A DNA stretch of 64,000 nucleotides. It comes from Arenicola marina (Eukaryota; Annelida; Polychaeta; Arenicolidae). Position numbers and translations under genes: made by a program. Of the stretch, positions 30,377 through 44,285 are shown one piece after another; position 1 is the stretch's first letter; each line of letters begins with the position of its first letter. The notes beneath the pieces were generated by a model. The model searched no databases. It had not been told where the DNA came from and saw only the letters and a list, made by a program, of their open reading frames with translations. Location: contig OZ025248.1 in the NCBI GenBank assembly GCA_964019135.1, forward strand, positions 34,465,670-34,529,669, given 5' to 3'.

Positions 30377-31866
30377 TCAGGGCACGGCCTGTGGTTGCGG
30401 GTGAGCCCCGAAGCCGATGGTCAGGTAGAAGATGAGGGTGATCATTCCCACGAGGAGGGTCAGGAGGATCCCGATGATGCTCAGTACCATGGAGACGGTC
30501 TTCAGCTGGCGAACCTCGTTCTTGGACTCCGAGTTCTGTCCGACACCTGGCGGGGAGATCAGCAACCAGTTAAGTCACGTGACGTTCACACCCGTGACAC
30601 GTTTGGTGCCCAAGCCAAGCCACCTATCACAAATTTTACACATACAGACTTAACATTATTATGTATAGAGTTGGAAACCACGCGCATGATGTCACGTTTG
30701 AAGTGACCGCCTGTCGAGAAAGAGCAGCTTTCCCGGGCGCAGCCCTCTTGGTGGGCGTGGCTGGCGCTAGCCAATCAGAGAGCGAGACCCAAACCGGAAA
30801 TAACGAAACGGGCGATGTTTACCTAACTTCACTCATATTCAACACACTATAAAAAGCCGCAGTTTATAGTCTAAGCACTCCTATTAGACGGATACAATCT
30901 GTCGAATTGTTAGTTGCTAAATCGAAAGTGGTTCTCGGGCCTAATTTCTAGAGGAGATGGTGTACTGTGTGGCTTGGAATTGTAACAATTCCAGCGCGAA
31001 GTGAGGCCACGGTGTATTTTTTCACGCGTTTCCGCTCATCCCTGGACAAGCGAGACCCAAATTCAACCGCATGTTGGCGCCACATGTATGATCATCCATT
31101 ACGTCACGCTCTGTGGCAAAATGGCGCGGCGGTTGAATTTACTGTGGACACAATTGCAAGTTCATTTCTTTGAACCTGTTGTTCTCTAAGACGTGTCGTG
31201 TTTTGCAAAGTTGCTTTTAGGACCAAAACATTTCGAAGACCTCACGATCATATTAAAGTTTTTACCCGCTTCAATGCATGAGATGTTATAAATCTAGCGA
31301 TTGGCATGCTTGTGGCAGTTATTAACATCGTATGTGCATCGATGCCTTTGCATGACATCGCCATACCACTTATATAATGACTAACATTATATAACTTCAT
31401 TTTTTATGCGGATAAACTAATGTCAATAAAACAAACAATTATAATTATAACAAATAATAATAATTTTAAAAAATAATAAAAAAAATTATAATAAAAAATA
31501 AAAATAATAAAAATAATAAGAAAAATAAAATAATAATATTAAAACAAAGAGACGTCTCCTTGGTTACGTACATGCCACGATGAAGGCAGCCAGGCCCAGG
31601 ACGGGGCTGAAACACCAGAAGACCAAGCAGGACAGGAGCATGAGGCAGGTCATGCTCGGGTAGGGGTCGCGGTAGTCGTCCACGTCCATCTCATCGATCA
31701 GCGTCACGTGGTGCATGGGCGGGGCGCCCCCTTTCGGGACGCTCTGGTAGCTCGGTGACGGGGTGTACGGGGGTGGCTGTTGGGGTGGGTAGCTGACCGG
31801 TCCGTTGACCGGTGCCCCCGGCTCTCCAGGCGACCCGGCCCCGGGGGCTAGTGGGTCACTCTCCAT
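30377..31866 (-). CDS. CD225/dispanin family membrane protein (IFITM/PRRT-like), two exons
   Basis: Coding exons are 31866-31572 and 30546-30377, minus strand, 465 bp, 154 residues. The donor T/GTACGT and acceptor CGCCAG/GTGTCG rejoin a Cys codon (residue 99) in phase 1. The Pro-rich tail (residues 5-50) has a PPPY WW-binding motif at 31-34. HHVTL (52-56) and PYPSM (68-72) precede a Cys-rich hydrophobic segment (72-99, FWCFSP at 83-88), then a polar loop with ..NEVRQLKTVS.. and a transmembrane helix (about 116-144). This is the CD225 layout, with the intron inside the domain as in vertebrate IFITM genes. Family members sit in plasma or endosomal membranes, and IFITMs restrict viral membrane fusion; function here is unproven. 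The start was chosen because ACCATGGAG and the preceding CTGT(T/A) recur in the gene at 38168-39745. The PRRT1/SynDIG branch is an alternative. Confidence 0.87.
30751..30855 (+). promoter_or_regulatory. TATA/CCAAT promoter inside dispanin intron, antisense
   Basis: In order: GC/CACCC-like GTGGGCGTGGC (30751-30761), CCAATCAG (30771-30778), an ETS-like ACCGGAAAT (about 30793-30801), and TATAAAAA (30848-30855). The spacing suits a plus-strand RNA polymerase II start near 30880, upstream of the THAP-like ATG at 30957. It lies within the minus-strand dispanin intron. Confidence 0.5.
30957..31185 (+). pseudogene. Degraded THAP-type zinc-finger N-terminus
   Basis: From ATG at 30957 the frame reads MVYCVAWNCNNSSAK, an in-frame TGA, then GHGVFFHAFPL and onward to a second stop after LAPHV. 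The CxxxxC pair and the FFHxFP motif match the start of the THAP DNA-binding domain (C2CH zinc finger). The TGA could be a CGA codon changed by CpG decay. Further on the frame is lost; a later frame gives VHFFEP, resembling the C-terminal CxxHF part of the domain. THAP domains occur in host transcription factors and in P-element-like transposases. The fragment lies antisense in the intron of the dispanin gene and has a promoter-like upstream region. It is probably non-functional, although a GTGAGG donor-like site at the stop leaves room for a spliced first exon. Confidence 0.5.
31425..31545 (+). repeat. AAT/AAAAT-rich simple repeat
   Basis: Almost pure A/T sequence made of AATAATAAAAAT-type units, ending 26 bases before the donor site of the dispanin first exon. 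It therefore forms the 5' end of that intron on the minus strand, giving a T-rich tract just inside the donor. Confidence 0.9.
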
Positions 31867-32078
31867 GGTAACAGCTGGCGGTGGATCGGGACGCTACTTC
31901 TGTTCGAAATGGATGAAAAAGCGTAAGAATTTAATTAAGCGATGTTCAGTGCATTTAACTTTGATGGAATTAGGTGCATCGCGAAGGTATGTCTTCATGT
32001 CCATCTCCACAGCAATCATCTTGTCATGGTAATGATAGCAATAATGAACCGCCCCAATCACTTTTCCTTAACAGATTT

Positions 32079-34229: not shown

Positions 34230-35380
34230 TATAACACTACGCCCCGGACCCGCATGACGACAATAAGGGCAACTTCGACTCTAACACAGAGTTGTTAGCA
34301 ATAATAGTACTAACCTTAGTAGTGTTACTCCTAATAGTAGTAGTAGTAGTGATAACAGTATTATTACCGGTAATAATAGCAGTAGTACTTGGAGCCGCAA
34401 GGCAAGGCCATGTAACTTCCTGATATAATCATAAACTGTAGTATATACGAGACTTTATGGCGCGATATTGTGGCTGAGATGTCAGTTACCTGAAGGGTAA
34501 ATCGTATAGTGTTCCATACAAGGGGAACAACAATTCAGCGCTAGGACAAACCACATGAACATTTAAGCAATTTTATACCACATAACCCATCAACGGAACT
34601 AGTCTTTGTTCAAAGTATAAACACAGTATATACCTATATATGTGTGCAATACATACATACAAATATTGTATAGATATTTACCTTTCAGTCGTTATAAATG
34701 CTACGTCTCCCACTAGGATGGCGTTAACACCGGAAACGCTACCATGTTCACGTGCAGCAACAGCAGGCTAGCTGGTATGCAACAAGGCTTGCCCTCAAAT
34801 CAATAACCTACAGCACTGCAAACACTGCACCGCAGTCGTTTCGATGAAATTTCACCGTGAGGGCTTTTTGAATAGGGCAGTTTGCTGATCGTCACGTGGC
34901 ATTGACAGGGCTGAGGGTGGGCTGCTGGGCTGCTGGGTTGCTGGGTTGCAGGGCTGCCGGCGACCGCGTCCAGATGCGCGTGGGATTATTGAAGTCCGTT
35001 CGAGGTTTGCCGGTGAAGTAATCGACCGTGGCTCGAATGTGAATCGATGGAAGCGTATCCGTCGTCAACAACCCTCTGACCCATATAGACTTGACCCAGA
35101 CCCAGACCCATAAGGCTGGGAGTCCACTGAATATTTATGTTCGTATTTATATATTGGTACATTGTACCGTCCCCCCCCCCCACCCCCACCCCTGCCCCAC
35201 CTTCTTCTTCCCCCGCCTCCCGCCCCCGCATCGACATTTCGTTATGGTATCTTATACGATTTGTCGTTTTTGCTGCTGATAAGTCGGGTTAATAAAGCTA
35301 GGATAGTTTGTTGGTCTGCTGCGGTTTGATTTTCTTTTGGTTTGAAATATTTGGTGGCAGATGTTTTCCGGGCCGACTAT
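34230..35380. other. Unassigned region
   Basis: A TAG/TAA trinucleotide-rich stretch at 34290-34390, unique AT-rich sequence, the GCTGCTGGG run and a C10 run at 35170. No gene recognised. Confidence 0.5.
34905..34968 (+). repeat. GGGCTGCTGGGTTGCTG short tandem run
   Basis: Five to six imperfect 8-9-base units (GGGCTGCTG, GGTTGCTG, GGTTGCAG) in a row. Small simple repeat. Confidence 0.75.
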
Positions 35381-35387
35381 GGGATCA

Positions 35388-35530
35388 CGCTAGAGTTCAT
35401 GTTAGGATAATGCTATGGTCCAGGCTAGAATCATGCTATGGTCCAGGCTAGAATTATGCTATGGTCCAGGCTAGAACCATGCTATAATCCATGCTAGGAC
35501 CGCTCTAGGGTCAATGCTAAGATCATTCCA
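35388..35530 (+). repeat. ~23-bp tandem repeat, 5-6 units
   Basis: Unit built on ATGCTATGGTCCAGGCTAGA. Three central copies are nearly perfect, and the outer copies (CACGCTAGAGTTCATG, ACCGCTCTAGGGTCAATGC) are decayed. Confidence 0.85.
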
Positions 35531-35608
35531 GGGTTGCTATTACGTATCTAGCTATACAAACGAAAACGTAGATTTAAAACAAGGTTACGACCGTTTTGGG
35601 ATACATAT

Positions 35609-35614
35609 TTTATT
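35609..35614 (-). terminator. Poly(A) signal AATAAA for the unpaired dispanin exon
   Basis: AATAAA on the minus strand, about 170 bases downstream of the TAG at 35786-35788. The spacing and strand suit a 3' UTR ending for the unpaired dispanin second exon, which favours that exon being a real terminal exon. Confidence 0.4.
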
Positions 35615-35785
35615 AGACCTCCATAAAATTGAAAGCGAAAAAAAAGAAACATTTCGCGCAATACGATATACACAAATGCGACAACAATGAGACAAGACCT
35701 TATTCATCCCCACAATAACTACAGAGGCGGCATATGGCACAACGCTTGGGTTTAGCTGGTTATCGCAGGACCGACAATGGACCAG

Positions 35786-35958
35786 CTACCCGTTGTCATA
35801 GTAGCGATGGTAGTTGTCACCTAGGCGACCGGTGTAGTGTAGAGCCAGGAGGACTGCGATGAGGAGGACGGTGGTCAGCACCCCAACCAGACTCAACCAG
35901 GCGGAGACGTCCCTCAGTCGGCGGGCCTCGCTGGCCTTGGCAGACCCCCGGGCCAGCC
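35786..35958 (-). CDS. Unpaired dispanin second exon (alternative 3' exon or gene relic)
   Basis: After an acceptor (C17 tract, then GACGCAG/GG) the frame reads LARGSAKASEARRLRDVS, AWLSLVGVLTTVLL and onward to YYDNG and TAG, 56 codons. It aligns with the second exon at 38168-38319 (LAKGSYSSQDAHRLRRTSIW) and has the same phase, a polar juxtamembrane loop followed by one transmembrane helix (about residues 19-42). No matching first exon is visible between 35958 and 38168. Joined to the first exon at 39478-39745 it stays in frame and would give a 146-residue protein, with TGG (Trp) at the junction where the other two genes have TGT (Cys). So it is either a mutually exclusive last exon of the upstream gene or what remains of a third tandem gene. 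An AATAAA lies downstream at 35609. Confidence 0.7.
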
Positions 35959-36017
35959 CTGCGTCGTCCACAGGGGGGGGGGGGGGGGTAGAATATACTA
36001 TAAATAACTCGAATTCT

Positions 36018-36090
36018 CGAGTACGCTGTCGTAAACGAGTACGCTGTCGTAAACGCGCACGCTGTCGTAAACGAGTACGCTGTCGTAAAC
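36018..36090 (+). repeat. 18-bp tandem repeat, 4 units
   Basis: Four copies of GAGTACGCTGTCGTAAAC (third copy GCGCACGC...), directly upstream of the unpaired dispanin exon on the minus strand. Because 18 is a multiple of three, a minus-strand frame runs through it (CLRQRTR units) and into the exon, but the acceptor argues that this is intronic. Confidence 0.93.
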
Positions 36091-36150
36091 AGGATTTGGT
36101 AGACCGGTCAATGAAATCGAACACTGTTTGGGGAACCGTTCGCCCTGGTG

Positions 36151-36291
36151 GATCGTTTCACTGAGAGCTCGTCACTGATAGCTCTTAATTTTACAATATC
36201 TTTTAAATCTAGTCTTCTTGGTTATGCCGCTGACGTGTGTTTATTGTCAGGGCTCGTATACCATGTGAGACACGCTCTCAGTGAAACGATC
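36151..36291. mobile_element. 141-bp element with perfect 18-bp terminal inverted repeats (MITE-like or foldback)
   Basis: GATCGTTTCACTGAGAGC at 36151-36168 is the exact reverse complement of GCTCTCAGTGAAACGATC at 36274-36291. The 105-base interior has no long open frame. The match stops abruptly outside both ends, and no clear target duplication is visible. It could be a miniature inverted-repeat transposon or a long-loop hairpin. It sits about 190 bases upstream of the unpaired dispanin exon. Confidence 0.6.
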
Positions 36292-36299
36292 ATAACGAT

Positions 36300-37740
36300 G
36301 GCTGAACCAGTTTCTGATACAAAATCTGTACAAACATCACTCTGCTTCATTTTACACCTCATGTAAAAGTTATAATAAAAGTCATTTTTCCCCGTCATAT
36401 GTGACACATTATAGAGGATAGCAGAATGCAAGAGCAGCTATCTTAGATAAAAGACGTTATCACTATGTACATCAAAATGTTAAAAATATTGATGACCAAT
36501 TATATTTGAATTGCTAAAAAAATGCACCCACCGTATGAGAGCAAAATAGAACTATAATTAACTGCAAAACTATAATAACTAACAACAACACCTAAGAAAC
36601 GGAAATAAAATAGTGCACCAATTTTGTATCACATCTTAGGCATATTCTTAATAACTGACATCATACACAGATACGATTTAAACATATAGGATTTTGTGTC
36701 CGGTTTTATAGGCCAAATAAAAAGGTTGGCATTTTCTTTACATCGTTTTTGTTTTCTTAAGACTCAAACATCAGTAAACAGCACATTGTGCTTCAATACA
36801 TGTCGCACTTTTGGAGGCGTGGAAACCAGTAGATGATGGTAGACATGACGAAGAAACAATTCACACGGTTTCCCAATTACAGGATATTGCGAAATACAAG
36901 CTAAAGGTCCCTGACATACCACACACCACAAGGAAGCTAAAGCCGGCTAAAGTGGTATATGAGTTGCCCTCAAAGTTTTAGGCGTCTCTTGTTGTCGGTT
37001 GGAGGATAAATATGGTTTGTAAAACCCGAAACAATCTTTTTCTTCGTAACGAAAATATTGACTTAACTCATTAGATAGACCATATGCGTGCAGGGTACAT
37101 AATTAACACTTAACTTTAAAACACCACTGTGAAGATGCCTTACTTGCAAGGATAACATAAAGACCACACAGAACGGAAAACAAAGAAAGCTTGTTATTTC
37201 CAGAGGAACATCCTTAAAGTTCCATATCGAGCTCTTTCCCGCCAAGTCTACAGAACTCCAAATACAAATACGAATCAGTCCTTAAATCATCCAAGATTTC
37301 TTTTGTCTATATTCCACGCATGGCAGACTGACAAATGGAGTCTCTCAGCCTTGCCCGTAATATCAATATACCACAGGTTTTCAACTTAGTGATAAACGTC
37401 ATCAGTTTGTGTGCTTCGAGATGCTTTGCTATAATTAGCAGTGCCGCGACAGAGTTCTGTGTTGTCCCGGGATAGATAGGTTTGCCACATCACAGCCGAA
37501 ACGGAGATGTTTATTAGGTTTCTGAATTTATAGAATGAAACAATCGAGTTTTCTGCAAATTATGATATAGATGTGGCTTGGGCTTGGTTTTGGCGGGGAA
37601 AAGCTCGATATGCAACTAATTAACGTCTGACAAAAGTGAAATAATTATATAGCAGCTGTTTTCGTTTTAATACATATTACTCCAACGGTACGCCACTCGA
37701 CAAGCCGACAATCTACTACTGCAGGTGGGTTCGTTCTCCG
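36300..37740. other. Unassigned region
   Basis: AT-rich unique sequence with no recognised gene, and no dispanin first exon on the minus strand despite a direct search for the HHVTL/PYPSM block. Confidence 0.5.
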
Positions 37741-37756
37741 TACACATGACCTCCAC

Positions 37757-37800
37757 TCCCATCCCCACCCCCACCCCCACCCCCACCCCCACCCCCATCC
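37757..37800 (+). repeat. (CCCCCA)n hexamer microsatellite
   Basis: About six to seven units of CCCCCA/CCCATC-type hexamers. It translates as poly-Gly on the minus strand, which is not a gene. Confidence 0.9.
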
Positions 37801-38167
37801 TCACCCCATCCCCTGCCAACTTCAGAAACGAGACCAGTTAAACTGGTCAAGTTGGAACTTAGAGACTTGTTGAACCTTGATGTTAAGCATAACATGCCAT
37901 GACCACTTCCGGACAAAGAGGTACATGTATCAGATACATCGTACGACTGTTATATTATTCATCTTCATCGCGATATAATTCATCTGTCTATGGTCGATTT
38001 CACCCACTGTGGATTCCATGAAGCCACTTCCGAAATCTATAGTGCCCCTCTCCTGGTTTCCTCGCTGAAGGTTTATATCAACTGGACGCCTGTGACAGTT
38101 TCTCGGCGCCGAGATTAGACTAGCTATAATAAATACTGCGGCGTGAGAGCGCCGACAACAGCGACAT

Positions 38168-39745
38168 TCAGTCGGCAGCGAAGAGTCCTATGGTGAAGTG
38201 CAGGATGACCAGAACGAGGCAGATTATGAGGGAGATGATCATGCCGACCACACTGAGCCAGATGGACGTCCGGCGCAAGCGATGGGCGTCCTGCGACGAG
38301 TAGGAGCCCTTCGCTAAACCTGAAATGTCAAGGTCAAGGTCAAGGATATGGTCAAGGATATGGTCAGGTAGTCATGGCGATGGTTATGTCCGAATGGCGG
38401 GCAAAGTCATGGTCAAAGTCATGGTTAAATTCATAAGGTCCCTGCTGAAACGGTCCGATTCGGTTCTCTCGAAGGGTTAGAGTCATGGTCATGGTCATGG
38501 TCAAGGTCATGGTCACCGTGTATGGTTACATGCTTGAGTGAACCACTTGTGGTGCTGGCCTGAGAGGAGGATTTCCCTTTCATGTAGTTGCGGTTTATCT
38601 CCTACTGGGCGGCTACAGACGACTGCTGTTCTACGTCACGGTGGTGTCATGAAGGGATCGACCCACTCTTCCACCTTCAGTACTGCGGAATGTTGCGACA
38701 AGTTGTTGGAGCTTTGCGCACATGAAGACTAAACTGGACTAAGATACCTCCCGGGACAATGACAAAGGGTTGGTTGAAATATGCACCAGCGTCAGGTGCC
38801 GTGGCTCGAACTCACGACCTGTTGATCCGCAGTTCAGCCTACTGACCTACTCAGCTAAGGGGGCTTCTCTCACATTACTCCTTATGGCAAACGTATGAAA
38901 ACGTGTCGCATAATGATGGTATGAAATCTAGGCTATTTGGACATTCAACGACATGACAACAACATCAAAAACAACAACCAATGTCCATTACCACTAAACA
39001 TGCAATGTTAAATAATGCCTTAGTTTAGATATCCTTAGATAACAGTAATACGCCACATAGAGAATGTACAATAAGAAATAATATAAATGTCGGTATAGTA
39101 CCTTAACAGCTTAGTGACTTAATATAGCGGTGGCTATGCTACTGAGTCGATGTGCATTGAGCCTTGGAAACGAATCCTGCAGCTCATTCCATGTCAAAAA
39201 ATGTGCATCTGTTTCTGAACAAGATGATCAAGTTCAGTTACGTCAATTAAACCGAAATAGTTCATTTATTTATCTTGTAACACACATAGCCTTAAGTTAT
39301 GACCCCATTAATATGGCGGGTCCAGTACCAACAGGGAGGGTCCACATCTTACATGGCGTGAAAAATATCATCCTGGCTTACAAAGGGAGCTGGAGCGTAG
39401 GGGGGGGGTCAGACCCGCAAGCGCCCCCCCCCCCCCGCTCTTTGGATCCTGTCCTGAATAGCTCAAGGGATACTCACAGCCGACGAAGAAGGCGGCTGCC
39501 CCGAAGATGGGACTGATGCACCAGAACACCCAGCAGGACAGCAGTAGGGGGCACCACATGCTAGGGTAGGGCTCCTGGGGGGCCTCCCCCTCATAGAGGG
39601 TCACGTGGTGCACGCTAGCCACGCCCCCTGGCGGCTCCTTGGTGATGGCTTGGTAGCCCCCTGGCGGCGGGCCGCTCCCGTCGTCATAGTCGGGAGGGGG
39701 TTCCTTGGAGGTGTAGGCGGCGTCCGCTAGGGGTTGCTTCTCCAT
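38168..39745 (-). CDS. CD225/dispanin family membrane protein (IFITM/PRRT-like), two exons
   Basis: Coding exons are 39745-39478 and 38319-38168, minus strand, 420 bp, 139 residues. Donor T/GTGAGT and acceptor TTTCAG/GTTTAG join in phase 1 and rebuild a Cys codon (residue 90), exactly as in the gene at 30377-31866. The N-terminal tail is acidic and Pro/Gly-rich with a PPDY motif (17-20). HHVTL (46-50) and PYPSM (59-63) lead into a Cys-rich hydrophobic segment (63-90, FWCISP at 74-79). A polar loop (LAKGSYSSQDAHRLRR) and a transmembrane helix (about 108-137) follow, ending FAAD. The start context AACCATGGAG is shared with the other gene. This domain order is that of dispanins; its membrane-proximal cysteines are candidates for palmitoylation. 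The 1158-bp intron contains GGTCA repeats and a SINE. A second possible 3' exon lies further downstream at 35786-35958. Confidence 0.87.
38328..38516 (+). repeat. GGTCAA/GGTCAT-rich repeat in dispanin intron
   Basis: Two clusters of GGTCA-based hexamers: GTCAAGGTCAAGGTCAAGG at about 38328-38347, and GGTCATGGTCATGGTCATGG at 38485-38504. TCAAGGTCA is also the extended half-site of ERR/SF-1/NR5A-type nuclear receptors, so the repeat could act as a binding cluster, but simple repeat expansion is the default reading. Confidence 0.8.
38745..38880 (-). mobile_element. SINE family B copy in dispanin intron
   Basis: Minus strand: TTAGCTGAGTAGGTCAGTAG as A-box region, GTGAGTTCGAGCCACGG as a decayed B box, then the family body piece TGGTGCATATTTCAACCA. 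Same strand as the host gene and as the other two copies of the family. Confidence 0.6.
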
Positions 39746-39949
39746 GGTTACAGACCCGGAGTCAGGGGACTCAAAGGTGCTGGTGTATATAAAGTGACAG
39801 TAAATCGAATATTTAAAGAAATAAAAGATACAAAAGAAATAGAAGAACAACGAATCAAAAAATAAGAATGGTGAAACTGTGGGACCAATTGAAATGTGCG
39901 ATACAGAAGAAATAATTCGCAAATTGTTTAACCAAATAATCCATTTAAT

Positions 39950-41620
39950 AGTTAATACCCCGAGTATTTAACATTAACATTACGGTTCGTTAAACTATAT
40001 TGGTAGATTCATCCAGTAATTGCATCACCGTTCATGTCCATCGAGTGGCAATAGACATGTTGCCATTCTTGTCCAGTAAAACGCTATAATTGGCAGCTAA
40101 TGCCTTAGACATGCACTACACCTTATTAGCATAAATCATGTTCGTCCAAAGTTATAATGGCCAATTTCGTCGACTAATTATACAGAAGTATTGAACATTA
40201 CCGATCATAACCAACGGGTCGGCTTGGTCAACAAGTTCGTCAACAAAAGTGATCAAATACGACTGAAGCCAACGAAGATAACTCCCATACCCATGTGAAG
40301 TAAAACTTATAAGTCTTAGATCAGGATATTGTTGAAGTTTTCATGTTTAATCGCATATCATCTCATGTAATCCTTGGTCAATACACAGTGCGAGAATTAT
40401 CTTCTTCCATACATTAAACCGTGACACACTTGAACAGAAGGTCATGTCGAGCACAGAGCTACAGGCAGCAATGGTCACGTGCCTGTGGATGAAGCCTCTC
40501 GCGTATGGTAATCATTTACGGCAAGATGCATACATTAAATAACGCGAAAGAGATAAACGACAATATGGCAACTTACAAACGCAAACACTTACCAACTGAT
40601 TGAATCTTATGGAGATACCAAACTGTTCTGGTCGTCGGGGACGCCAATACAAAACGTCTCTTGTTGTCAGCCAATATTTGCGGTTGGTTCCGCTTCGCGA
40701 TCGAGAGGGATTGAGAAATCAATTACAAACCGCTCGTCTCCCCGGAGAATGGCTTCAGTGACGGGTGGGTCGGTGTGGGCCTGATGAACCGAGATCAGGC
40801 GGCCGCCATTGTAACAGCGTCGCATTGATCCCAGCTCAGACTGCTGACAGTAATTGTCATGGTATTAAATACTATATATGTATATATATATATATGCGAC
40901 GTCAAACCGCAGCAGGTTGCGGTGAGGGGCTGTTGCCATGCCTACTCATGGGTGTTTTGTGGGTGACTGGTGGAGAGCCTCTCCCCGAGAGGCTGGTGTG
41001 GATAGGGTAGGGTAGTGAGGTGTGGGATTGATGGGGGTGGGGGGGGGTGACGGGGCTTGCGAGGGAGGGAGGGAGGGCAGAGGGGACTCGGGGCTGGGGT
41101 TGTAGACAGCTGTAGCTAACGGTGAGGGTTCTTCAATGCAGGGCTTCACAGTCAAGGTGTCTGTCTGTCACACCCTGCTGGGGTTAATATTAGATTGCGA
41201 GTTGAAGTGGATTGAAGACGTGGTTCAGATATCCGCATGGCAATGGGACAGATCACCTGGGAAAATGGATTCCTCAAATCATAATTTTAACTAGATATAA
41301 AGCCGGTTAGCTGGACTTTACACGCCAAAAAAACTCGTTTTACTTACATGGCTTAACTGTGGGTTTAATGTCACAATACGTTGATCGCACGGAAATTAAC
41401 ATTTGGCCTTACACAATGACATGCCTAGATACGCCTCATTCCATACTCACTGAATCGTACAATATTTGCTCATGATGAACCGGGACAAACGGAAGGAGCA
41501 GGAATATGCTTCTAATCTTACAAGTAGAGCAGCCGGAAGTTTAGTATTCAATGGAAGAGCCGGCATTACTTCGAACCTCGTGGCATTAGTAAGCACCGCA
41601 GCCAATGGTATGCGGCATTG
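39950..41620. other. Unassigned region upstream of dispanin gene
   Basis: No recognised gene. A (TA)n stretch lies at 40870-40894 and a G-rich patch at 41030-41100. A minus-strand open frame at 40946-41155 is Pro/Ser-rich (translation of CCC-rich DNA) and carries no domain. Confidence 0.5.
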
Positions 41621-41629
41621 CGATTGGCG

Positions 41630-44285
41630 TGATTAATGTCTTACCAATTTTACCTGTAGCCAGTGTCATGAATGGTTTTTCAATAGACACTTGTAGTCAG
41701 TGTAATCAATGCCATATCTATATACACATGTGGTCAGTGTAATCAATGTCATAACAATATACACCTGTGGTCAGTGTAGTCAATGCCATATCAATATACA
41801 TCTGTAGCCAGTGTAATCAATGCCATATCAATATACATCTGTAGCCAGTGTAATCAATGTCATATCAATATACACTTGTAGCCAATGTAATCAATATCAT
41901 ATACATATGCACCTGTAGCCAGTGTAATCAATGCCAAATCAGTATACATCTGTAGCCAGTGTGATCAATGTCATATCAATATACATCTCTAGCCAGTGTG
42001 ATCAATGTCATATCAATATACATCTGTAGCCAGTGTTACATTAATCAATGTCATATCTATATACACCTGCAGCCAGTGTAATCAATGCCATGTCTATATA
42101 CACCTGCAGCCAGTGTAATCAATGCCATATCTATATACACCGGTAGCCAGTGTAATCAATGTCATATCTATATACACCTGTAGCCAATGTCATCAATGTC
42201 ATATCAATATACACTTGTAGCCAGTGTAATCAATGCCATATCTATATACACCTGTAGCCAATGTCATCAATGTCATATCAATATACACCGGTAGCCAGTG
42301 TAATCAATGCCATATCAATATACACCTGTAGCCAGTGTAATCAATGTCATATCTATATACACTTGTGGCCAGTGTAATCAATGTCATATCTATATACACC
42401 TGTAGCCAATGTCATCAATGTCATATCAATATACACCGGCAGCCAGTGTAATCAATGTCATATCAATATACACTTGTAGCCAATGTAAGCAATGTCTTTT
42501 CAATATAGACCTGTAGCCAGTGTAATCAATGTCATATCAATATACACCTGTAACCAGTGCAATCAATGTCTTTTCAATATACACTGGTAGCCAGTGCAAT
42601 CAATGCCATATCTATATACACCTGCCGCCAGTGTAATCAATGCCATGTCTGTATACACCTGGAGCCAGTGTATACACTTGTAGCTAGTGTAATCAATATC
42701 ACATCAATATACATCTGTAGAGCCAGTGTGATTAATGTCATATCAATATACATCTATAGCCAGTGTGATCAATGTCATATCAATATACATCTGTAGCCAG
42801 TGTTACAGTAATTAATGTCATATCAATATACACCTGTGGCCAGTGTAATCAATGTTTTATCAACATACACCTGTAGCCAATCTAATCAATGTCATATCAA
42901 TATACATCTGTAGCTAGTGTAATTAATGCCATATCTGTATACACCTGGAGCCAGTGTAATCAACGTCAGATCAATATACATCTGTACCCAGTATGATCAA
43001 TGTCATATCAATATACACCTGTGGCCAGTGTAATCAATATCATATAAAAATACACCTGGAGCCAGTGTAATCAATGTCATATAAATATACACCTGGAGCC
43101 AGTGTGACCAATGCCATATCAATATACATCTGTAGCCAGTGTGATCAATGTCATATCAATATACATCTGTAGCCAGTGTAATCAATGTCATATCAATATA
43201 CATCTGTAGCCAGTATTACAGTAATTAATGCCATATATGTATACACCTGGAGCCAGTGTAATCAATGTCATGTCAATATACACCTGGAGCCAGTGTAATC
43301 AATGCCATGTCTATATACACCTGGAGCCAGTGTATTCAATGCCATAACTATATACACCGGTAGCCAGTGTAATCAATGTCATATCTATATACACCTGTAG
43401 CCAATGTCATCAATGTCATATCAATATACACCGGTATCCAGTGTAATCAATGCCATATCTATATACACCTGTAGCCAATGTCATCAATGTCATATCAATA
43501 TACACCGGTAGCCAGTGTAATCAATGTCATATCAACATACACCTGTGACCAGTGTAATCAATGTCTTTTCAATATACACCGGTAGCCAGTGTAATCAATG
43601 CCATATCTATATACACCTGCAGCCAGTGTAATCAATGCCATGTATATATACACCTGGAGCCAGTGTAGCCAATGCCATTTCTATAAACACCGGTAGCCAG
43701 TGTAATCAATGTCATATCTATATACACCTGTAGCCAATGTCATCAATGTCATATCAATATACACTTGTAGCCAATGTAATCAATGCCATATCTTTATACA
43801 CCTGTAGCCAATGTCATCAATGTCATGTTAATATACACCGGTAGCCAGTGTAATCAATGTCATATCAATATACACTTGTAGCCAATGTAATCAATGTCTT
43901 TTCAATATAGACCTGTAGCCAGTGTAATCAATGTCTTTTCAATATACACCTGTAACCAGTGTAATCAATGTCTTTTCAATATACACCTGTAGCCAGTGTA
44001 ATCAGTGTCATATCAATATACATCTGTAGCCAGTGTGTTCAATGCCATAGATCAATAAACATCTGTAGCCTGTGTAATCAATGTCATATCAATATACACC
44101 TGTAGCCAGTGAGTTCAATGCCATAGATCAATAAACATATGTATCCAGCGTGTTCAATGTCATATCAATAAACATCTGTAGCCAGCGTGTTCAATGCCAT
44201 AGATCAATAAACATCTGTAGCCAGTGTGTTCAATGTCATATCAATATACATCTGTAGCCAGTGTGATCAATGTCATACCAATGTC
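41630..44285 (+). repeat. 37-bp satellite array, ~71 units
   Basis: Unit built on TGTAGCCAGTGTAATCAATG then TCATATCAATATACACC. Variants include GCCATATC, CTTTTC, TCTATATAC and GGAGCC. Some adjacent-unit pairs recur (for example CCAATGTCATCAATGTCATA next to CACCGGTAGCCAGTG), a sign of higher-order duplication. The right end (after about 44030) shows a variant with GTTCAATGCCATAGATCAA. Short stop-free stretches inside are array artefacts. Confidence 0.97.

What the first reader, a model, noticed from the sequence alone, without database searches (positions are those of the whole stretch)
35786..39745. One dispanin first exon followed by two alternative second exons
On the minus strand a CD225/dispanin first exon (39478-39745) is followed by two homologous second exons in the same phase (38168-38319 and 35786-35958). 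The second has its own acceptor with a long pyrimidine tract, an intact frame to a stop, and an AATAAA downstream. No first exon lies between them. Alternative last-exon use would give two proteins with the same N-terminal tail and reentrant segment but different transmembrane C-termini, and with Trp instead of Cys at the junction. I am not aware of this as a standard arrangement for IFITM/dispanin genes. The alternative is a third tandem gene that lost its first exon.
Basis: partly seen in the sequence, partly recalled or inferred. Interest (0 to 1): 0.82.

Follow-up and report, generated by a model that had tools for sequence, protein, structure and literature searches.

The report
One dispanin-like gene, two last exons
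An animal gene for a small membrane protein related to the antiviral IFITM family is followed by two different versions of its final exon, either of which could complete the protein, but without RNA data one cannot tell whether the second is used or is a leftover of a lost neighbouring gene.

Summary
On the minus strand a first coding exon (39745-39478) is followed by two homologous last exons in the same phase (38319-38168, 35958-35786), each open to a stop with an AATAAA downstream. The genome searches (867 Mb) and the window show two first exons of this subfamily (gene A, neighbour gene B) but three last exons. No convincing first-exon remnant lies in the 2.2 kb between A's last exons, and the extra exon's frame has no Met back to the previous stop, so it needs an upstream exon. 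It looks coding: GC3 0.79, 19 of 43 residues shared with last exon 1; a simple decay model makes long neutrality unlikely.
Against use: its acceptor scores 0.7 bits, its neighbours 6.5 and 7.3. A related cluster on contig C18 holds four truncated extra last-exon pieces, so relics form here. The selection test on its branch is not significant.
I favour alternative last exons (0.5); a recently orphaned third gene (0.35) stays open. The proteins miss Pfam CD225 and are distant dispanin relatives.

The parts
39478..39745 (-). gene A first coding exon: N-terminal tail and first hydrophobic segment, phase-1 donor GTGAGT
   Evidence: also matches gene B's first exon (E 1e-12)
38168..38319 (-). gene A last exon 1 (TM segment; ends ...GLFAAD stop)
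   Evidence: acceptor 6.5 bits
35786..35958 (-). extra last exon (TM segment; tail ...GDNYHRYYDNG stop), phase-1 compatible with gene A's donor
   Evidence: acceptor 0.7 bits; no Met in frame back to 36157
37510..37515 (-). AATAAA downstream of last exon 1
35609..35614 (-). AATAAA downstream of the extra last exon
31572..31866 (-). gene B first coding exon (paralogue of gene A)
30377..30546 (-). gene B last exon
   Evidence: acceptor 7.3 bits; only E 1.06 and 1.22 in the genome searches
39746..39779 (-). inferred 5' UTR part of gene A's first coding exon, behind an acceptor-like site (4.6 bits)
   Evidence: inference
36018..36090 (-). 18-bp tandem repeat, about 4 copies, ending 60 bases upstream of the extra exon
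36151..36291 (.). 23-nt inverted repeats enclosing 95 bases (mobile-element-like) upstream of the extra exon

Best explanation
Gene A of a tandem pair of dispanin-like genes carries two alternative last exons. The same first exon (cytosolic tail plus first hydrophobic segment) is spliced at a phase-1 donor either to 38319-38168 or, when that exon and its poly(A) site are skipped, to 35958-35786. The products would share residues 1-89 and differ in the loop, the transmembrane helix and the C-terminal tail: junction Cys with a short tail, or junction Trp with a longer, charged, Tyr-rich tail. Shown: exon anatomy, phase, homology, no recognisable other first exon nearby, coding-like composition. 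Inferred: that the second junction is used, and that the weak acceptor makes it the regulated or minor form.
For: Same phase and homologous exon border as gene A last exon 1, gene B and the related genes on contig C18. Intact 57-codon frame. GC3 0.79 while the gap is 40% GC, against GC3 0.82 and 0.86 for the other two last exons of the locus. Second codon positions best conserved against last exon 1: 29 of 43, against 19 and 19. In a neutral model with 0.26 substitutions per site, 1.35% of simulated exons keep frame and lack stops when frameshifts are counted, 40% when stops alone are counted. Two first exons but three last exons of this subfamily found. No Met in the exon's frame, so a splice partner is needed; the nearest homologous donor upstream is gene A's. 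An AATAAA behind each last exon. The Tyr-rich tail resembles by eye those of C18 proteins and of P0002 and P0005.
Against: The acceptor is the weakest of those scored at last-exon borders: 0.7 bits, against 6.5 and 7.3 in the window, 5.1-8.0 for the best AG near four C14 last exons, and 9.9 and 9.2 at the two C18 borders scored in place. Branch omega of the extra exon is 0.21, but the test against 1 gives 2dlnL 1.47, not significant with 40 codons. In the exon tree the best of four tested topologies groups A with B, not A with the extra exon, although all four stay in the confidence set. At 0.1 substitutions per site 15% of neutral simulations are still intact, so recent loss is possible. Four truncated last-exon pieces in the C18 cluster, three of them about 1 kb downstream of a gene's last exon, show that relics form in this position. 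Full last exons pair one to one with first exons in C18 (8:8) and C14 (4:4 by weak matches). The Trp junction departs from the Cys of genes A and B. No transcript was seen.
Confidence: 0.5

Rival explanations
1. Relic of a third tandem gene that lost its promoter and first exon not long ago; the remaining last exon is intact but unused.
For: Tandem gene family (A and B in the window; clusters on C18 and C14). Four truncated last-exon pieces in the C18 cluster show that the process occurs. Weak acceptor with displaced pyrimidine tract. Mobile-element-like inverted repeats at 36151-36291 and 37218-37617 in the gap. The exon tree does not tie the extra exon to last exon 1: 50% support, and the best of four tested topologies groups A with B.
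Against: The C18 pieces lack their 5' part, whereas this exon is whole. No convincing remnant of a first exon in 2.2 kb. An intact frame after deep divergence means that the loss would have to be recent.
Confidence: 0.35
2. The extra exon ends a separate transcript with its own, non-homologous first exon in the 2.2-kb gap or farther upstream.
For: One ATG-started candidate with a phase-1 donor of 7.4 bits at 37895-37805.
Against: Such candidates are common by chance: 39 of 58 segments of that size (both strands of the window) hold at least one with an exon of 30 nt or more and a donor of 5 bits or more. The product would lack the first hydrophobic segment of the family.
Confidence: 0.1
3. Assembly artefact: a third first exon was lost in assembly.
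For: Minisatellites and simple repeats nearby.
Against: No N seen in the sequence of 34500-44000. No further copy of this first exon among the 21 scored candidates of the genome search.
Confidence: 0.05

Closest known systems
Dispanin/CD225 proteins (IFITM, PRRT, SynDIG, TMEM91 and relatives; PMC3282796, passages read)
   Same: Two hydrophobic segments split between two exons by an intron in the loop between them; proline-rich N-terminus; profile-profile match to a set that includes CD225-bearing proteins
   Different: Pfam CD225 is not reached; one Cys instead of the double Cys, no G-D motif in the loop, A-X6-S instead of A-X6-A; a second complete last exon behind one first exon
IFITM genes with alternative first exons in horseshoe bats and some other mammals (PMC11801718, passages read)
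   Same: One IFITM-type gene giving two proteins by alternative splicing rather than by gene duplication
   Different: There the N-terminus changes (alternative first exon, endocytic motif); here the transmembrane C-terminal half would change (alternative last exon), and use is not shown
Dispanin-like cluster on contig C18 of the same genome (about 14.555-14.675 Mb)
   Same: Phase-1 intron at the corresponding place, similar exon 2 and Tyr-rich tail; the last 32 residues of gene A's first exon match 7 of 8 first exons there at E 3e-4 to 0.012 in the 140-kb region
   Different: One full last exon per first exon (8:8); the four additional last-exon pieces there are truncated

Membership tests
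Dispanin/CD225 | Pfam CD225 (PF04505) over its cut-off | tested here: not met
   No CD225 row for A, the A+extra-exon form, B or the extra exon with max_evalue 10; the rows shown are other families below their cut-offs, best DUF4328 at 5.8e-4 for the A+extra-exon form. Of two C18 relatives one reaches CD225 at 19.8 bits, cut-off 27.1
Dispanin/CD225 | conserved splice site in the loop between the two hydrophobic segments (PMC3282796) | tested here: met
   phase-1 border at the corresponding place in A, B, the extra exon and C18 genes
Dispanin/CD225 | double Cys in the first helix | tested here: not met
   A and B read ...FWCISP / FWCFSP, one Cys at that place
Dispanin/CD225 | G-D and A-X(6)-A motifs in the loop | tested here: not met
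   no G-D in the loop; A-X6-S in last exon 1 and in the extra exon, neither in B
Dispanin/CD225 | common descent with known members | tested here: met
   hhalign probability 99.3% over 80 columns, A1 (A, A+extra exon, B) against A3 (two C18 proteins, P0001, P0002, P0003, P0005 and the oyster PRRT1-like P0012; four of the seven bear PF04505); A1 is not independent, since one first exon counts twice, and one junction residue of a C18 row was mistyped
Alternative last exon event | two terminal exons behind one donor, each with acceptor in phase, stop and poly(A) signal | tested here: met
Alternative last exon event | acceptor of usable strength at the distal exon | tested here: inconclusive
   0.7 bits at 35958; a phase-compatible AG at 35997 scores 4.1; matrices recalled, not trained on this genome
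Alternative last exon event | transcripts with both junctions | not testable with these tools
   no RNA data for this genome

The most novel reading that the evidence does not exclude
A dispanin-like gene that swaps its whole C-terminal transmembrane half by alternative last exons, the mirror image of the alternative first exons reported for mammalian IFITM genes, with a Tyr-rich tail like that of the related C18 proteins kept only in the distal form.
Probability: 0.45. Interest if true: 0.5.

Novelty: new variant of a known kind. Interest (0 to 1): 0.38.

Why it matters
If used, one gene could make two membrane proteins that share the cytosolic tail and first hydrophobic segment but differ in the transmembrane helix and tail. 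It would show a second splicing route to diversity in a superfamily whose mammalian IFITM branch diversifies more often by gene duplication (87% against 36% of species, PMC11801718). If unused, it is a case of an orphan exon that is still intact in a tandem family.

Tried and rejected
A shared 14-mer (GACAACAAGAGACG at 36996 and at 40668, in gene A's 5' flank) looked like a relic promoter of a third gene; BLAST E 0.057 to 0.13 and no extension, so not counted. Selection on the extra exon by a home-made codon model: right direction, not significant. Tree of last exons: unresolved. A protein search with gene A found nothing at E <= 1e-3 among 60 candidates. The alignment search (3 proteins at E <= 10 among 3084 candidates) found P0010, a clear relative of gene A's first exon (E 2.7e-19) from an NCBI contig of 1645 bases; it ends where the donor would be, and it carries no last exon; the contig was not available to me. 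PDB search with gene A: two matches at E 0.19 and 1.5, unrelated molecules. NCBIfam: nothing over a cut-off. Structure prediction was not run: a spliced protein is not read letter for letter from the window. No scan of viral contigs, genome contigs or metagenome contigs was run. The organism was not identified.

Full report
What is there. The window lies in an 867-Mb assembly of 762 contigs (C1:34465670-34529669). On the minus strand, gene A has a first coding exon 39745-39478 ending at a phase-1 GTGAGT donor, and two later exons in the same phase: 38319-38168 and 35958-35786. Spliced to gene A's first exon they give proteins of 139 and 146 residues. Gene B, a complete paralogue on the same strand, has exons 31866-31572 and 30546-30377.

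Homology. The extra exon and last exon 1 share 19 of 43 residues. None of 1000 shuffles reaches the score in any of the three exon-2 pairs. The genome search with gene A's protein gave 13 matches at E <= 10 from 21 scored candidates. Those at E <= 0.001 are its own two exons, gene B's first exon (1e-12) and the extra exon (6e-4); gene B's last exon comes at 1.06. The search with the extra exon gave 9 matches: itself, last exon 1 (6e-5), six in a cluster on C18 (1.5e-3 to 1.8e-2) and gene B's last exon (1.2). So I find two first exons and three last exons of this subfamily; weak or very diverged copies could be missed, and a search with gene B's protein did not complete.

Family. Pfam CD225 does not report the window proteins, and the six CD225 places in the genome lie outside the window. 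The C18 cluster is a bridge: one of two proteins tested reaches CD225 at 19.8 bits, below the cut-off of 27.1, the other does not. A search with the former finds 9 database proteins at E <= 0.001, three with precomputed CD225. Profile comparison of the window proteins with seven relatives gives probability 99.3%. By the motifs named in the dispanin paper (PMC3282796, passages read) the splice position is met; the double Cys, G-D and A-X6-A motifs are not. I call it a distant dispanin relative and do not file it as a CD225 member.

Is the extra exon coding? Its frame is intact with no Met back to the stop before 36157, so it cannot start on its own at AUG. GC3 is 0.79 while the gap is 40% GC. 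Against last exon 1, codon positions 1, 2, 3 agree at 19, 29, 19 of 43. A home-made branch model on 40 codons of six exons (A, extra, B and three of the eight C18 last exons) gives omega 0.21 for the extra exon and 0.31 elsewhere; fixing it at 1 costs only 1.47 in 2dlnL, not significant. One of the three C18 rows (c3) belongs to a copy with a stop in its first exon. The fit with omega 1 puts 0.77 neutral substitutions per codon, about 0.26 per site, on that branch. Simulated from the extra exon itself (equilibrium GC 0.45 and indel ratio 0.1 are my assumptions), exons at that distance stay without stop in 40% and without stop or frameshift in 1.35%; at 0.1 per site the figures are 66% and 15%. 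Long neutrality is thus unlikely, recent loss of use is not excluded.

Splice signals. With recalled, approximate matrices the donors of A and B score 5.5 and 6.3 bits, the acceptors of last exon 1, extra exon and gene B 6.5, 0.7 and 7.3. In C14 the best AG near each of four last exons scores 5.1-8.0; in C18 the best near each of eight scores 9.9-10.6, but for seven of these it was a neighbouring AG, not the exon border. My two attempts to score the borders of six C18 exons were three bases off and are not used; the two borders scored in place, c4 and c8, give 9.9 and 9.2, and the other six read almost the same there. The C16 run before the extra exon ends 14 nt from the exon. A phase-compatible AG at 35997 scores 4.1 and would add 13 residues.

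Where is its first exon? tblastn of three first exons (A, B, C18) against 38167-35500 at a loose threshold gives a best E of 7e-4, to a run of prolines on the opposite strand. On the transcript strand the best is E 0.19, 24% over 25 residues of gene B's first exon at about 37611-37537, which I take for chance. One ATG candidate with a phase-1 donor lies at 37895-37805, but 39 of 58 equal segments, both strands of the window, have at least one. In the C18 cluster 8 first exons pair with 8 last exons, several of them damaged by stops or frameshifts. Four further last-exon pieces there lack their 5' part; three lie about 1 kb downstream of a gene's last exon, one stands apart. C14 has 4 to 4, found by weak matches with partly made-up queries. 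So extra last-exon relics form in this genome, even at the corresponding place; those seen are truncated, the one in the window is whole.

Mechanism and judgement. The simplest reading is alternative last-exon choice with the distal exon as the weaker option: last exon 1 is normally joined and polyadenylated, and skipping it lets the donor reach the extra exon 3.5 kb away, which has its own AATAAA at 35614. This is inferred; no transcript was available. The rival of a recently orphaned third gene fits the weak acceptor and the tandem setting. The exon tree (38 columns, nine rows, three of them shortened by hand) cannot decide: A with the extra exon has 50% support in the free search, while among four fixed topologies A with B is best by 0.5 log units, and all four stay in the confidence set.

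What is in print. Searches of open-licence papers: dispanin + alternative splicing + exon (7 papers, 6 listed); IFITM + invertebrate + CD225 (3); dispanins + novel gene family (44, 10 listed); at least three of IFITM, splice variant, second exon, isoform (582, 12 listed); IFITM + alternative last exon (1); PRRT2 splicing (1); IFITM in molluscs (16, 10 listed). The one with 'alternative last exon' uses the phrase in its methods and reports two human IFITM1 isoforms (PMC12803322, passages read). The closest is alternative first-exon use in horseshoe-bat IFITM, which also reports that alternative splicing recurs in mammals (PMC11801718, passages read). PMC3424830 (passages read) notes several transcripts for some IFITM genes. 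I saw no report of duplicated last exons in a dispanin in these listings and passages; most of the listed papers I did not open.

Noticed in passing
31866-31572 and 30546-30377 (-): Complete paralogue (gene B) of the dispanin-like gene on the same strand, with Cys at the junction like gene A.
   Followed up: yes
L029-L042 (C18:14540001-14680000): Tandem cluster of eight dispanin-like genes, several with internal stops or frameshifts, plus four truncated extra last-exon pieces, three of them about 1 kb behind a gene.
   Followed up: partly
L043-L047 (C14:13012001-13062000): Four first-exon/last-exon pairs of dispanin type in tandem, two of the first exons matching CD225 over its cut-off.
   Followed up: partly
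40593 and 39779 (-): GTAAGT donor and acceptor-like site suggest a noncoding 5' exon and a 5' UTR intron in gene A; gene B has an acceptor-like site at 31899 too.
   Followed up: partly
37218-37617 and 36151-36291: Inverted-repeat pairs (28 and 23 nt arms) that look like small mobile elements; copy number in the genome was not obtained because the search did not complete.
   Followed up: no
41652-44282: Minisatellite of 37-bp units, about 71 copies, upstream of gene A.
   Followed up: no
37749-37807 (-): G-rich 6-bp tandem repeat in the transcript strand between last exon 1 and its AATAAA; a possible splicing or polyadenylation regulator, untested.
   Followed up: no
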